This document shows positions 11,845 to 15,672 of a stretch of 64,000 nt of DNA, one piece after another (positions within the stretch are counted from its first letter, which is position 1; every line of letters starts with the position of its first letter). This DNA comes from Alphaproteobacteria bacterium. Its GTDB lineage: Bacteria > Pseudomonadota > Alphaproteobacteria > UBA8366 > Aestuariispiraceae. Made by a program: the position numbers and the translations under genes. A model generated the notes under the pieces. It saw nothing but the letters and a program-made list of their open reading frames with translations. It was not told the origin of the DNA and ran no database searches. Location of the stretch: the NCBI GenBank assembly GCA_030065235.1, contig JASJDC010000010.1, positions 1 to 64,000 of the forward strand, in the 5' to 3' direction.

Positions 11845-13041
11845 TCAATGCCAGTGATCCTCGAACGGATAGTCGCTGAGCGGCTGCGCGCCGCTCTCGG
11901 TGATCAGGACTTGTTCCTCGAGCTTGATGCTCTCACGCCCGCCTTCGGTTCCGACCAGACTTTCGATGCACATCGTCATGCCGGATTCTATGACCCCGTC
12001 ATAACCGCCCTTATCCCAGTCTTGGGAATAGAGAATTCCCGGCCATTCGTCGCATAGGCCGACGCCATGGGCGACGACCGAATAGCGGTTGGCGACGAAT
12101 TCGGCCGGCAGTCGAAAGGAGTTTTCTGAGAACTCCTTGAAGCTCATGCCGGGCTGGATGAACGCAATATTCTCGCGGATCTGGGTGCGGGCGACCTCAT
12201 AAAGCCGGCGCTGCTCGTCGTTCGGCGGGCGTTCGCCGCAGATCCAGGTCCGTGAGATGTCGGAACAGTAGCCATTGGGACCGACCAAATCCGTATCGAA
12301 ACTGACGATATCGCCGTCTTGAATCTCACGATGGCTACATTCCTGAAACCAGGGATTGGTGCGCGGCCCGGAAGTCAACAGCCGTGTTTCGATCCACTCG
12401 CCGCCCAGTTCGATATTCGTCTGATGCAGCACCGACCAGAGTTTCGTCTCCGTCACGCCCGGCTCAAGCGCCGCCCGCATCCGCCGCATGCCTTCCTGGC
12501 AGGCGTCGATCGATTCCCGCATCGCCAGCAGTTCGTCGGCGTTCTTGATCGCGCGCGCCCTTTCGAGGATGGACTGGCCTTCCGCCACATGGATTTGCCG
12601 CGCCTGCAGCGCATGCAGACCCATCGGGTCCAATCTGTCGACGGCGAGCCGCCGATTGCCGCCGCCATGCCGCGCGACCAGATCGGCGATCTCGTCGGCC
12701 CAGACCTGAACCCGGTTTTCCGCCTCAGAACCCGCCAGGAAAAAGGTCCATGAAACAGCCGGCCGCACCTCGTCGACCGTCTCAATATCCTTGGATAGAT
12801 GCGCGCAGCCGTGGAAATCGAACAGCACCACCGGGCCGTCGGTCGCGACAAAGGCGTAGCGGACGGCGTTATGCAGCGTCCAGACCTGCATGTTCGATGT
12901 GTCGGTCGCGTAGCGCACATTCAGCGGATCGTAGAGCAGCGCCGCCGCGCAATCCTGGGTCCGCAACTGTTGACGCACCCGTTCCAGCCGGTAGGCGCGC
13001 AAGGCCGGCTTATTCACCTTGGTGGCGTGAAACGCCGTCAT
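11845..13041 (-). CDS. DddP-like M24 family protein, candidate DMSP lyase
   Basis: 398 aa with the creatinase/aminopeptidase P (M24) fold: an N-terminal domain (about 1-165) and a pita-bread domain. Blocks such as GGEWIETRLL, SGPRTNPWFQEC, VSFDTDLVG, HGVGLCDEWP and IKLEEQVLITE are the ones I know from DddP, the enzyme that cleaves dimethylsulfoniopropionate to DMS and acrylate. The predicted metal ligands are Asp249, Asp251, Asp261, His325, Glu360 and Glu375, and the proposed catalytic Asp331 and Tyr320 are present. These match DddP residues 295, 297, 307, 371, 406, 421, 377 and 366 (numbers from memory) with a constant offset of 46. It lacks the longer N-terminal extension of DddP. It overlaps the upstream HD gene by ATGA. 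A non-lyase M24 paralogue remains possible. Confidence 0.72.
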   Translation of the reverse strand: MTAFHATKVNKPALRAYRLERVRQQLRTQDCAAALLYDPLNVRYATDTSNMQVWTLHNAVRYAFVATDGPVVLFDFHGCAHLSKDIETVDEVRPAVSWTFFLAGSEAENRVQVWADEIADLVARHGGGNRRLAVDRLDPMGLHALQARQIHVAEGQSILERARAIKNADELLAMRESIDACQEGMRRMRAALEPGVTETKLWSVLHQTNIELGGEWIETRLLTSGPRTNPWFQECSHREIQDGDIVSFDTDLVGPNGYCSDISRTWICGERPPNDEQRRLYEVARTQIRENIAFIQPGMSFKEFSENSFRLPAEFVANRYSVVAHGVGLCDEWPGILYSQDWDKGGYDGVIESGMTMCIESLVGTEGGRESIKLEEQVLITESGAQPLSDYPFEDHWH

Positions 13042-13640
13042 GCCGCGTCGGACTGGCCGGCGGCCTTGGGCGCGGCGTCTAGATTGTGGAACTTCGACGT
13101 CGCGAAGACGCGGCGCACCATCGGCTCAAAAAACGCGATCGGCAGCGTATCGTAATCCGGGTCGAACGAGGCCTGATCATAGGCCTCACAGAAATGGACG
13201 CAGTCCGCATACCAGGGATGAGACTTGTGGCGGTCGCGGGCGTTTCTGTCCTGGCCGAAATGATGGCCGTAATAGACCATCTGAAACAGGCCATGCATCT
13301 TGACGATCCAATGGACCCGCTCGCTGACATGGGGTTTCAGGATCGCGGCGGCGACCTCGCTGTGATTTGAGGGCGAGAGGATGTCGCCGATATCGTGGAA
13401 CAGGGCGGCGACGATCATGTCCTCATCCGCCCCGTCGCGATAGGCGCGCGTCGCCGATTGCAGCGAATGCTCGTAGCGCGTTACGCGGTAGCCGTCGATG
13501 CTGTCTTTCAAGAGTTCAAGCTGGGCCAGAAGCCGGTCCGGCGTCGCCGCTATGAAGGCCTTCTCATACTCTTCGAGCAGAAGATATTCGTCGCGGGTTC
13601 CGTCCGCCATCGCCGTGAAATCGACCGTCCGCCCCGTCAT
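13038..13640 (-). CDS. HD-domain protein, possible diiron oxygenase
   Basis: 200 aa from the ATG at 13640, chosen for AAGGAG 7 bases upstream; an earlier ATG at 13679 lacks this. The HD core is plain: His58 in YEHSLQSA, His82-Asp83 in LFHDIGD, then His93, His104, His116 and the paired His126-His127, and Asp155 in EAYDQASFDPDY. The EHSLQ-24-HD pattern resembles the mixed-valent diiron oxygenases of the PhnZ/TmpB type rather than nucleotide phosphohydrolases, but I cannot assign a substrate. Its stop codon overlaps the start of the DddP-like gene (ATGA), so the two are translationally coupled and probably act in one pathway. Confidence 0.78.
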   Translation of the reverse strand: MTGRTVDFTAMADGTRDEYLLLEEYEKAFIAATPDRLLAQLELLKDSIDGYRVTRYEHSLQSATRAYRDGADEDMIVAALFHDIGDILSPSNHSEVAAAILKPHVSERVHWIVKMHGLFQMVYYGHHFGQDRNARDRHKSHPWYADCVHFCEAYDQASFDPDYDTLPIAFFEPMVRRVFATSKFHNLDAAPKAAGQSDAA

Positions 13641-13759
13641 CGCGCTCTCCTTGTCTAGAGCGAAAAGCATCGCCGCCAAGCGGCGCCGCCGTCAATGACG
13701 CTCCGCCCAAACAGGAAGGATGAATTCTCACCCAAGGGCGATTCTGATTGATGGAAAGG

Positions 13760-14275
13760 TCAGGGCGCCAGATCGCGGAAGGCGGCGACCACCTTGCGAT
13801 ACAGGTCGCGCTTGAAATCGACCGTCAGGGCGACAAGCGAATCCATGGGGGCCCAGCGCCAAGCCTCGAACTCCGGGTGATGCAGGGTCAAATCGACATC
13901 GGAATCCTGGCCCAGAAAGCGGAAAGCGAACCATTTCTGCTTTTGGCCGCGATATTTGCCCTTGAAAGCCTTGCGCGAATATTCCGGCGGCAGGTCGTAG
14001 CGCAGCCACCCCTTGGTCTTGCGCAGCAGCGCGACCTTATCTGGCGAGAGACCTGTTTCCTCATAAAGCTCGCGCAAGGCGGCGTCGCCGGGTCTCTCGC
14101 CTTTGTCCACGCCGCCCTGGGGCATCTGCCAATGTTCGCCGGGAATGTCGCGCCGGTTCCCGACAAAGACCTCACCGCGCCCGTTGAGCAGCATCAGGCC
14201 AACACAGGGCCGATAGGGCCGCGCGTCCTCGCTGGAGGCCGAGGCCTTCTTGTCCTTGCCGCGGGTCTTGGACAT
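13760..14275 (-). CDS. rppH: RNA pyrophosphohydrolase, Nudix family
   Basis: 171 aa from the ATG at 14275. RppH removes pyrophosphate from the 5' end of mRNA and starts decay (also known as dinucleoside polyphosphate hydrolase). YRPCVGLMLLN opens the Nudix fold and GEHWQMPQGGVDKGE leads into the Nudix box ending ALRELYEETGL (to about residue 75). GWLRYDLP and YRGQKQKWFAFRF are typical of RppH. It starts 9 bases after the polysaccharide deacetylase stop and is the last of the gpmI-envC-ctpA run before a 119-base gap to the HD gene. The N-terminal Lys/Ser-rich 18 residues are extra. Confidence 0.93.
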   Translation of the reverse strand: MSKTRGKDKKASASSEDARPYRPCVGLMLLNGRGEVFVGNRRDIPGEHWQMPQGGVDKGERPGDAALRELYEETGLSPDKVALLRKTKGWLRYDLPPEYSRKAFKGKYRGQKQKWFAFRFLGQDSDVDLTLHHPEFEAWRWAPMDSLVALTVDFKRDLYRKVVAAFRDLAP

Positions 14276-14283
14276 GGCGGGAC

Positions 14284-15672
14284 CTAACTCGCGAACCGCT
14301 CCGAGATCACGGCGGAGGCCGGGATCAGCGCATAGCCGTTGGCGTCCAGATCCTCCGACCAGATGCGAAGCCTTTCGAGCGTCATCGGAAAGGGTTTGGC
14401 CAGAACGATGACCGAGCCGTTCGCGCTGGCCAGCGATTCGGCGAGTTTCAGCCGTTGCAGCACATGGGCGCGGCCGAAAGATCCGTCGACGACGATATCG
14501 GCCTGCGACACCGGGACGCCGACCGAACGCGCGATGCGCGGGGTGGTCGAGGCGGACGCCTGTCTTCCATCCAAATAGATCAGCCCGCGCGTCTTCAAAT
14601 CGTTGAAGACCGGCCGCACCGCCTGGGCGTTCGCGGCGAAGGCGCCGCCCTGATAGCTGACCAGGCCGACATAGCCGGTGGCCCGGCTGAGCACCCAATG
14701 AAGCCGCCGCACATTCTGATCCGCGTCGAAACCGCTCATCAAGGCGAAGGGACCCGGGTCGCTCCTGGGGAAATCCGCGGGCTCCAGCGGCAAGGTCAGC
14801 ATCACCTCATGCCCGTCGGCGCGGGCCTGTTCGATCCAGTCGCCGACCTTTCGCGCGTAGGGCGCGAAGGCCAGCGTGATCGGTCCCGGCAGCGCGATCG
14901 CCGCTTCGACCCGCCGGGCGTTCACACCCAGATCAGTGACGACAACGGCGATCTTGGGACGCGTCTCCAACGGATTGGAGGGCCGGGAATAAACCTGCCA
15001 GGCACGCCGGCCGTCCTCGCCGATCACCGGCAAAGGACCCACCTCGCTCTCTACGATCAGGCCCGGATCCGGGTGCGGCGCCAGCGTGTCTGCGAAAAGG
15101 TCGGGGATCGGCGGGTCGTCGATGATGTCGGAGGCCGCGTCCGTAGCGGGAACGTCGGCAAGCGGCCTGTCCGCCGCCGCATCGAGCTGGACTGGATCGG
15201 CGGAAGAGATCGCCGGGTCGGGGTCGCTAACGGCCGATACGGCCTCTTTCGCCGCCTCAGCCGCCGCCTCGAGAGCCGCCTCGACCTGGGATTCGGCGTC
15301 CGCTGTGTCGCCCCTAGCCGTCTCGCCCCCAGCCGTCTCACCGACGCGGCGGACGACGATCCGATCGCCAGCCACTTCCGCCTTGGGCCGCGCCTCGATC
15401 ATTTCCTGCTCGATCTGATCCGCCGACAGGATCAGATAGGCGGCGACGCCGCCCAGCGCGGCGGCGGTGGCGGCATAGCCGCCGATCACCGCGATCCAGG
15501 GCAGCCGGCGCTTCAGAGCGTCCGATTCGCCGGTGCGGGGCGCAAAGGCGAACGCGTCTTTGTCTTCGTCTTGGTCTTCATCGACGCCCTCAGACGGGCC
15601 ATTGAGACCGTCGCCAGCGGATCGCTTGCTGAAAGGAAGGCTCAACTTCGGCGCTTTAAAGGGCTGCTTCAC
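14284..15672 (-). CDS. Divergent polysaccharide deacetylase family protein
   Basis: 462 aa from a GTG at 15672 with a perfect AGGAGG (15684-15679) 6 bases upstream; an in-frame ATG at 15750 has no such site. There is a short cytoplasmic N-terminus, one membrane anchor (WIAVIGGYAATAAALGGVAA, about residues 52-71), a long acidic, Ala-rich periplasmic linker, then the divergent polysaccharide deacetylase domain from PKIAVVVTDLGVN through VMLTLPLEP, GLVSYQGGAF and VIVLAKPFP. This family follows ctpA and envC in many alphaproteobacteria; a role in the cell wall is inferred, the substrate unknown. It precedes rppH by 8 bases. Confidence 0.88.
   Translation of the reverse strand: MKQPFKAPKLSLPFSKRSAGDGLNGPSEGVDEDQDEDKDAFAFAPRTGESDALKRRLPWIAVIGGYAATAAALGGVAAYLILSADQIEQEMIEARPKAEVAGDRIVVRRVGETAGGETARGDTADAESQVEAALEAAAEAAKEAVSAVSDPDPAISSADPVQLDAAADRPLADVPATDAASDIIDDPPIPDLFADTLAPHPDPGLIVESEVGPLPVIGEDGRRAWQVYSRPSNPLETRPKIAVVVTDLGVNARRVEAAIALPGPITLAFAPYARKVGDWIEQARADGHEVMLTLPLEPADFPRSDPGPFALMSGFDADQNVRRLHWVLSRATGYVGLVSYQGGAFAANAQAVRPVFNDLKTRGLIYLDGRQASASTTPRIARSVGVPVSQADIVVDGSFGRAHVLQRLKLAESLASANGSVIVLAKPFPMTLERLRIWSEDLDANGYALIPASAVISERFAS

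What the first reader, a model, noticed from the sequence alone, without database searches (positions are those of the whole stretch)
11845..13041. DddP-like protein retains the whole DMSP-lyase active site
The M24-fold protein shows Asp249, Asp251, Asp261, His325, Glu360 and Glu375 at metal positions, plus Asp331 and Tyr320. These match DddP residues 295, 297, 307, 371, 406, 421, 377 and 366 (numbers recalled from the structure) with one constant offset of 46 residues. Surrounding blocks (SGPRTNPWFQEC, HGVGLCDEWP, IKLEEQVLITE) match too. The N-terminal extension of known DddP is absent, so it could be a shorter, divergent lyase or a sister peptidase family.
Basis: partly seen in the sequence, partly recalled or inferred. 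Interest (0 to 1): 0.75.

Follow-up and report, generated by a model that had tools for sequence, protein, structure and literature searches.

The report
DddP-like enzyme outside DMSP-lyase clade
This bacterial gene encodes an enzyme predicted to be almost superimposable on a known marine sulfur-releasing enzyme (DddP), but it belongs to a large sister family whose genes often sit beside genes that break down betaines, so its intact active site alone does not show that it makes the climate gas DMS.

Summary
Window 11845-13041 (minus strand, 398 aa) carries every reported residue; the eight residues align with DddP at one offset of 46, and Trp95 is kept as Trp54. The predicted fold superposes on DddP crystals (TM 0.94, 1.7 A) better than on peptidases (0.66-0.77). 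The interpretation needs correcting. The protein misses NCBI's DddP cut-off (440 of 600 bits), has no room for the N-terminal extension and lies outside the DddP clade (AU p 0.0145). The same nine residues are identical in 162 of 182 family members sampled, so they do not diagnose DMSP lyase. Relatives often stand beside betaine-demethylation genes: MttB, dimethylglycine dehydrogenase, M24 in 44 of 47 Mesorhizobium-type rows, and the same genes around two nearer relatives (L006, L143). In the window the gene overlaps a PhnZ/TmpB-like HD gene. Best reading: a binuclear-metal, non-peptidase enzyme acting on an onium carboxylate; DMSP lyase activity is possible but unproven. Surveys that count such homologues as dddP may overstate DMSP cleavage.

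The parts
11845..13041 (-). DddP-like M24-fold protein, 398 aa (P0001)
12856..12882 (-). residues Trp54 to Tyr62: Trp54 = DddP Trp95 (sulfur binding in DddP); Tyr62 stands where the DddP clade has Ala103
   Evidence: role from PMC5395565 (section 9), number 95 recalled
12337..12372 (-). SGPRTNPWFQEC, residues 224-235; Phe232 stands where E. coli PepQ has a His; Ser236 follows (Gly282 in 33 of 33 DddP-clade rows)
12259..12297 (-). metal ligands Asp249, Asp251, Asp261 (DddP 295, 297, 307)
12040..12087 (-). residues 319-334 with Tyr320, His325 (metal), Asp331 (putative base)
11917..11964 (-). metal ligands Glu360 and Glu375 (DddP 406, 421)
13038..13679 (-). HD-domain protein (213 aa from TTG; true start not settled), PhnZ/TmpB-like, upstream partner in a putative two-gene operon
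13038..13041 (-). ATGA overlap: stop of the HD gene and start of the DddP-like gene
13760..14290 (-). NUDIX gene upstream on the same strand; probably not part of the function

Best explanation
P0001 is a member of a large DddP-like sister family: a binuclear-metal enzyme (dimer inferred) with the M24 pita-bread fold that is not a peptidase. Shown by computation: fold, residue set, clade position, gene context. Inferred: it works as DddP is proposed to work. Two ions (iron in DddP) held by Asp249, Asp251, Asp261, His325, Glu360 and Glu375 bind a substrate carboxylate; Trp54 and Tyr320, perhaps with Tyr62 from the N-domain, hold a positively charged onium group (N+ or S+); Asp331 takes the alpha proton and a neutral amine or sulfide leaves by beta-elimination. 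The main substrate is probably a betaine-type osmolyte, or betaines and DMSP both, rather than DMSP alone. In this genome the gene is probably co-transcribed with that of a PhnZ/TmpB-like HD oxygenase (inferred from the 4-base overlap).
For: Model pLDDT 92.9; Foldseek TMq 0.94, rmsd 1.7 to 4s01/4rzy/4s00/4b28, against 0.66-0.77 for the other 46 of the 50 rows shown, all peptidases, creatinases or ectoine hydrolases. Nine catalytic residues kept. Clade: DddP 100/100, P0001 outside; AU p 0.0145. Betaine-demethylation genes (MttB, DMGDH, Rieske or homocysteine methyltransferase) within 5 kb: Mesorhizobium type 44 of 44, P0001 clade 3 of 8, Rhizobium/Pseudomonas/Paraburkholderia 9 of 21, grade30 group 9 of 20, three other groups 0 of 8, 0 of 3 and 0 of 5, DddP clade 7 of 25, arbitrary stretches 1 of 20. 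HD neighbour: E 3.3e-6 to PhnZ, 1.8e-4 to TmpB.
Against: No substrate was tested. P0001 itself has no MttB, DMGDH or Rieske gene within about 5 kb, only the HD gene; the betaine link rests on relatives, 3 of 8 in its own clade. The Mesorhizobium rows are close kin, so 44 is not 44 events, and the Fisher p values are not valid as probabilities; even so the P0001 clade does not differ from the DddP clade (p 0.67), nor do two other groups (0.36, 0.35). The control stretches come from 15 other alphaproteobacterial genomes, none a Mesorhizobium. DddP-clade members can have the same neighbours (7 of 25, five of them from one genus; L283 overlapping DMGDH, L290 Rieske). Three sister groups (16 loci) have none. 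In 3841 pRL12 the Rieske cluster exists without the M24 gene, so M24 is not needed for that pathway. The Pseudomonas Rieske protein scores only 132 bits to GbcA. That sister clades keep a lyase mechanism is not shown.
Confidence: 0.5

Rival explanations
1. P0001 is a genuine, divergent DMSP (and DMSOP) lyase: DMSP to DMS plus acrylate, by the DddP mechanism, without the N-terminal extension.
For: All nine residues kept and fold superposes at 1.7 A. The host genome has an acrylyl-CoA reductase-like gene (412 bits, over the TIGR02823 cut-off of 297, but 424.6 under NF051456's 440) and a DmdA-like gene (364 of 410 bits). HD genes also lie beside two DddP-clade genes (L293 same strand, L303 convergent).
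Against: Below the DddP equivalog cut-off, outside the DddP clade, differs at clade-typical sites Ala103, Phe155, Gly282 and Pro283, lacks the extension; AcuI stands within 5 kb of 4 of 25 DddP-clade genes (one of them the source of a query) and of 0 of 109 sister-clade genes counted.
Confidence: 0.3
2. An M24-type hydrolase (of an amide, an N-methylated dipeptide or a creatine- or ectoine-like compound) feeding the demethylation enzymes.
For: Creatinases and ectoine hydrolase share the fold (TMq 0.70-0.75); creatinase makes sarcosine (recalled), and sarcosine/dimethylglycine dehydrogenase-like genes are neighbours in relatives.
Against: M24 catalytic histidines replaced as in DddP; best hydrolase phmmer score 57 bits against 350 for DddP.
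Confidence: 0.12
3. An ordinary prolidase or aminopeptidase P, as plasmid records name its relatives ('Xaa-Pro peptidase family protein').
For: The annotation in records and Pfam M24 plus Creatinase_N domains.
Against: Residues, phylogeny and fold, as above; PMC5395565 (section 9) reports that RlDddP, with the same replacements, has no measurable Val-Pro activity.
Confidence: 0.03

Closest known systems
DddP DMSP lyase (RdDddP 4b28, RlDddP 4rzy/4rzz/4s00/4s01; NCBIfam NF043017)
   Same: fold (TMq 0.94), all six metal ligands, Tyr366, Asp377, Trp95
   Different: 41-43% identity, no N-terminal extension, 440 of 600 bits, outside the DddP clade, different residues at 103, 155, 282 and 283
Mesorhizobium-type DddP-like proteins (MttB-DMGDH-M24 clusters)
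   Same: nine residues identical in 47 of 47; 53% mean identity to P0001; below the DddP cut-off (best such copy 467-486 bits in 14 genomes)
   Different: nearer to the DddP clade than P0001 is; longer N-terminus; betaine-demethylation neighbours
Rhizobium/Paraburkholderia/Pseudomonas 'Xaa-Pro peptidase family protein' beside Rieske oxygenases or BCCT transporters
   Same: nine residues identical in 22 of 22 rows of the clade, 51% mean identity to P0001
   Different: neighbours: Rieske systems, betaine transporters, hydroxyproline epimerase in part of the clade
Phn-HD / PhnZ / TmpB oxygenases (for the neighbour gene)
   Same: HD signature; His71, His95, Asp96, His129 and Asp168 invariant in 11 of 11 aligned homologues
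   Different: only about 58 residues align by sequence; 42.5 of 214.6, 37.6 of 300 and 25.6 of 300 bits

Membership tests
DddP DMSP lyase | six metal ligands 295, 297, 307, 371, 406, 421 | tested here: met
DddP DMSP lyase | Tyr366, Asp377 and Trp95 at the substrate | tested here: met
   with the ligands shared by 162 of 182 members sampled, so not diagnostic
DddP DMSP lyase | score over NCBI's equivalog cut-off (600 bits) | tested here: not met
   440.5 bits
DddP DMSP lyase | position inside the clade that holds the two crystallised DddPs | tested here: not met
   (AU p 0.0145, groups named after a first tree); Oceanimonas and fungal DddPs were not in the tree
DddP DMSP lyase | N-terminal extension of about 45 residues | tested here: not met
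DddP DMSP lyase | DMS and acrylate released from DMSP | not testable with these tools
   needs protein
M24 peptidase (prolidase, aminopeptidase P) | two catalytic histidines besides the metal-binding one | tested here: not met
   Phe232 stands where E. coli PepQ has His; Asp331 = DddP Asp377, which replaces the other His according to PMC5395565 section 9 (PepQ is not reliably aligned there)
M24 peptidase (prolidase, aminopeptidase P) | closest fold and sequence | tested here: not met
Phn-HD/PhnZ/TmpB (neighbour HD gene) | score over the family cut-offs | tested here: not met
   42.5 of 214.6, 37.6 of 300, 25.6 of 300 bits

The most novel reading that the evidence does not exclude
The DddP superfamily is at root a family of betaine-type onium-carboxylate lyases (for example releasing an amine from beta-alanine betaine or a related zwitterion) working beside MttB- or Rieske-type demethylases; DMSP lyase is one nested clade that changed a few residues (Ala103, Gly282). 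P0001 would then be a quaternary-ammonium lyase paired with a di-iron oxygenase, and much environmental 'dddP' would not make DMS.
Probability: 0.3. Interest if true: 0.75.

Novelty: new variant of a known kind. Interest (0 to 1): 0.55.

Why it matters
dddP makes up about 65% of ddd genes in the Tara data of PMC10686828 (passages), and surveys rest on homology: PMC7494906 (passages) kept matches at E up to 1e-50, then filtered them by trees and BLAST, and reports dddP in 43% of its genome bins; PMC7039863 (passages), also with a tree filter, reports dddP in 37.8% of sediment bacteria on average, prominent in Pseudomonas and Mesorhizobium. Here 78 of 385 alphaproteobacterial genomes match the DddP model at 1e-70 but 12 pass its cut-off, and of 20 genomes searched through loci that had been picked for a P0001 relative (14 Mesorhizobium or Aminobacter, 5 Pseudomonas, 1 Hwanghaeella) one passes. 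If the sister clades do not cleave DMSP, such budgets may be inflated; if they do, DMSP cleavage is far wider than thought. Either way the window's short enzyme and a Mesorhizobium cousin are a direct test. The context also suggests a setting (betaine demethylation) from which DddP may have evolved.

Tried and rejected
Null-host argument: Rhizobium is used as a host that cannot catabolise DMSOP (PMC10686828, passages). I hoped that a DddP-like gene of its own would make it a negative control; that the host derives from strain 3841 is recalled. pRL12 of 3841 has the Rieske cluster without the M24 gene, so the argument tests nothing and was dropped.

HD-DddP pairing as a general rule: rejected. 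The HD family (alignment A1, E 1e-25) occurs in 109 of 385 genomes; compared by eye with the places, it lies within 10 kb of a DddP-like gene in 2 (G000, the window; G200, about 5.6 kb). The pair is on one strand here, in L002 and L003, and in L293, whose HD gene is too divergent to appear; it is convergent in L303 and L235.

A first count of neighbours used an ABC ATPase query that rings for many ABC transporters and broad dehydrogenase queries; searches replaced it. In those the queries come from loci in the set (L005, L006, L048, L056, L059, L176, L202, L203, L235, L279, the window), so these rows find themselves. In one search the 15-kb window stretch was not loaded, and rows without a locus or with under 3 kb of flank on one side were dropped: 8 of 33 DddP (two are the PDB chains), 3 of 47 Mesorhizobium-type, 2 of 10 in the P0001 clade (P0001 and L002), 1 of 22, 3 of 11, 10 of 30, 1 of 4, 4 of 9; 16 of 182 rows belong to no group and were not counted.

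Not done: distances in the model, docking, Oceanimonas or fungal DddP in the tree, re-analysis of published metagenomes. The original RlDddP paper (10.1111/mmi.13119) is not held. Statements on what is not in print rest on the listings only.

Full report
Observation. The gene lies on the minus strand (13041 to 11845, 398 aa, ATG). Against the RlDddP chain, Asp249, Asp251, Asp261, Tyr320, His325, Asp331, Glu360 and Glu375 align with 295, 297, 307, 366, 371, 377, 406 and 421, one offset of 46; Trp54 aligns with Trp95. The roles are as given in PMC4108388 (abstract, sections 8 and 9 read) and PMC5395565 (section 9, part 1, read); the number Trp95 is recalled; the original RlDddP paper is not held. 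The extension is absent and there is no room for it: a stop lies 29 codons upstream, and no ATG, GTG or TTG start lies between.

Fold. phmmer gives 350 bits to DddP chains and 57 bits to the best prolidase. The AlphaFold2 model built from 42 window and locus proteins has mean pLDDT 92.9. Foldseek places four DddP entries first (TMq 0.94, rmsd 1.7) and a prolidase next (0.73, 3.7). Phe232 stands where E. coli PepQ has a His, and Asp331 equals the DddP Asp that replaces the other M24 His (PMC5395565). By these measures it is not a peptidase.

Is it DddP? NF043017 (DddP equivalog) gives 440.5 bits against a cut-off of 600. In 385 alphaproteobacterial genomes 78 match at E 1e-70 or better and 12 pass the cut-off, with scores from 903 down to 241 bits, often several copies per genome. 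In the window's family 14 of 14 genomes match and 4 pass; 8 have both a copy of 589 bits or more and a copy of 414-435 bits (the latter in another sister clade, not P0001's); the window's genome is the only one with a single match at that E value. A tree of 184 rows and a careful tree of 79 chosen rows put the two PDB DddPs in one clade (100/100 in the latter). The Mesorhizobium-type rows and six ungrouped rows join the DddP clade at 100/92; the P0001 clade (ten rows, 90/88; P0001 with two Hwanghaeella rows 100/98) lies outside, with the root placed on the most distant group. Forcing the P0001 clade and the DddP clade together is rejected (log-likelihood 30.25 lower, AU p 0.0145); the groups were named after a first tree was seen, which weakens that p value.

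The active site is not diagnostic. All nine residues are identical in 162 of 182 rows: 33 of 33 in the DddP clade, 47 of 47 Mesorhizobium-type, 22 of 22 Rhizobium/Pseudomonas/Paraburkholderia, 11 of 11 and 4 of 4 in two other groups, 9 of 10 in the P0001 clade (the exception, L206, has changes at 95, 366 and 377), 22 of 30 in grade30, 0 of 9 in the most distant group, which has Gly at 377 in 9 of 9. What separates the 33 DddP-clade rows from 140 others (the most distant nine left out) is chiefly Ala103 (Tyr 81, His 43; Tyr62 here), Phe155 (Trp 123), Gly282 (Ser 123) and Pro283. Position 103 lies eight residues from Trp95 in the N-domain, which in RdDddP forms the wall of the partner's tunnel (PMC4108388, section 8); a role in substrate choice is inference.

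Context. In the window the gene overlaps by ATGA an HD gene that resembles PhnZ (E 3.3e-6) and TmpB (1.8e-4) over about 58 and 40 residues and keeps His71, His95, Asp96, His129 and Asp168 in 11 of 11 aligned homologues, so a di-iron oxygenase is likely (inference). The same pair, same strand, occurs in two Hwanghaeella loci. In other relatives the neighbours are betaine-demethylation genes. In L176, from the window's own family but with a copy outside the P0001 clade, the order is M24, MttB, DMGDH, behind two genes that I read as threonine catabolism (Pfam shows a zinc dehydrogenase and an aminotransferase-fold enzyme). In 44 of 47 Mesorhizobium-type rows the order is MttB, DMGDH, M24 on one strand, with a homocysteine S-methyltransferase gene within 5 kb in 36 of 44. 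In plasmids of R. leguminosarum WSM1325, R. etli CIAT 652 and a Paraburkholderia, M24 follows a Rieske oxygenase (WSM1325: 411.6 bits to GbcA, cut-off 670) and its reductase, and in the two Rhizobium plasmids a hydroxyproline epimerase or proline racemase gene and glycine betaine/proline ABC genes lie next to it. In Pseudomonas MPC6 M24 stands before a BCCT gene, with a Rieske gene (132 bits to GbcA) some 6 kb upstream.

Counts within 5 kb: 44 of 44 Mesorhizobium-type, 3 of 8 P0001 clade, 9 of 21, 0 of 8, 9 of 20, 0 of 3, 0 of 5 for the other sister groups, 7 of 25 for the DddP clade (five of the seven from one genus), 1 of 20 for arbitrary stretches of 15 alphaproteobacterial genomes (2 of 20 by the wider rule). 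AcuI is within 5 kb of 4 of 25 DddP-clade genes and of 0 of 109 sister-clade genes. These are counts of related sequences, not of independent events, and apart from the Mesorhizobium type no sister group differs significantly from the DddP clade in the Fisher tests. So the betaine link is strong for the Mesorhizobium type, present but patchy elsewhere, and not unique to the sister clades.

Host. The window's genome has four MttB-family genes, a DmdA-like gene below cut-off (364 of 410 bits) and an AcuI-like gene (424.6 of 440 bits in NF051456; 412 over 297 in TIGR02823), and three M24 proteins in all. This keeps a DMSP role possible.

How it most likely works. By analogy with DddP: carboxylate on the metal pair, onium group in an aromatic site (Trp54, Tyr320, perhaps Tyr62), Asp331 as base, beta-elimination. 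Residues and predicted fold are shown; dimer, metal, substrate and reaction are inferred.

Literature. PMC7039863 (passages) names Pseudomonas and Mesorhizobium as prominent dddP holders in sediments; PMC7494906 (passages) kept matches at E up to 1e-50, followed by tree and BLAST filtering. I did not re-analyse their data; whether their sequences belong to the sister clades is inference, in line, in which 1 of 20 genomes passes the DddP cut-off (these genomes were chosen because they hold a P0001 relative). In the listings of ten searches and in the parts read of eleven papers (sections of PMC4108388 and PMC5395565; passages of PMC5395565, PMC10686828, PMC7039863, PMC6309047, PMC11306096, PMC3338564, PMC12239276, PMC12478193, PMC9327192 and PMC7494906) I saw no report that links this family with MttB or Rieske clusters.

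Noticed in passing
L210 3935-22897 (NC_008378.1, R. johnstonii 3841 pRL12): Rieske, GlxA, hydroxyproline epimerase and betaine ABC cluster is present but the M24 gene, found at this place in WSM1325 and TP25, is absent; two genes annotated as DMSP lyase (family) proteins flank ETF genes in the same region.
   Followed up: partly
L277 and L278 (own genome, contig 13): An MttB-family gene, two DMGDH-like genes and a DmdA-like gene of 364 bits (cut-off 410) lie within about 20 kb.
   Followed up: partly
L160 2420-8690; also L145, L150, L157: DddP-like genes in tandem: four copies in L160, two in each of the others, which may mean diversified substrates.
   Followed up: no
L108 (2801-4009), L129-L134, L154, L172: Most distant DddP-like group has Gly instead of Asp377 and Phe or Tyr instead of Trp95, with all metal ligands kept: the chemistry probably differs.
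   Followed up: no
L283 3537-7345; L290 4648-7288: DddP-clade genes with an overlapping DMGDH gene (L283; its genome's DddP scores 866.6 bits) or a Rieske gene 59 bases upstream (L290), on the same strand.
   Followed up: no
L235 151-7025: A distant DddP-like gene near a PhyH dioxygenase gene, a choline dehydrogenase-like gene and a more PhnZ-like HD gene (106 of 214.6 bits to Phn-HD).
   Followed up: partly
class survey: The window's HD family occurs in 109 of 385 alphaproteobacterial genomes, mostly as a single copy and seldom beside DddP-like genes; what it does there I did not establish.
   Followed up: partly
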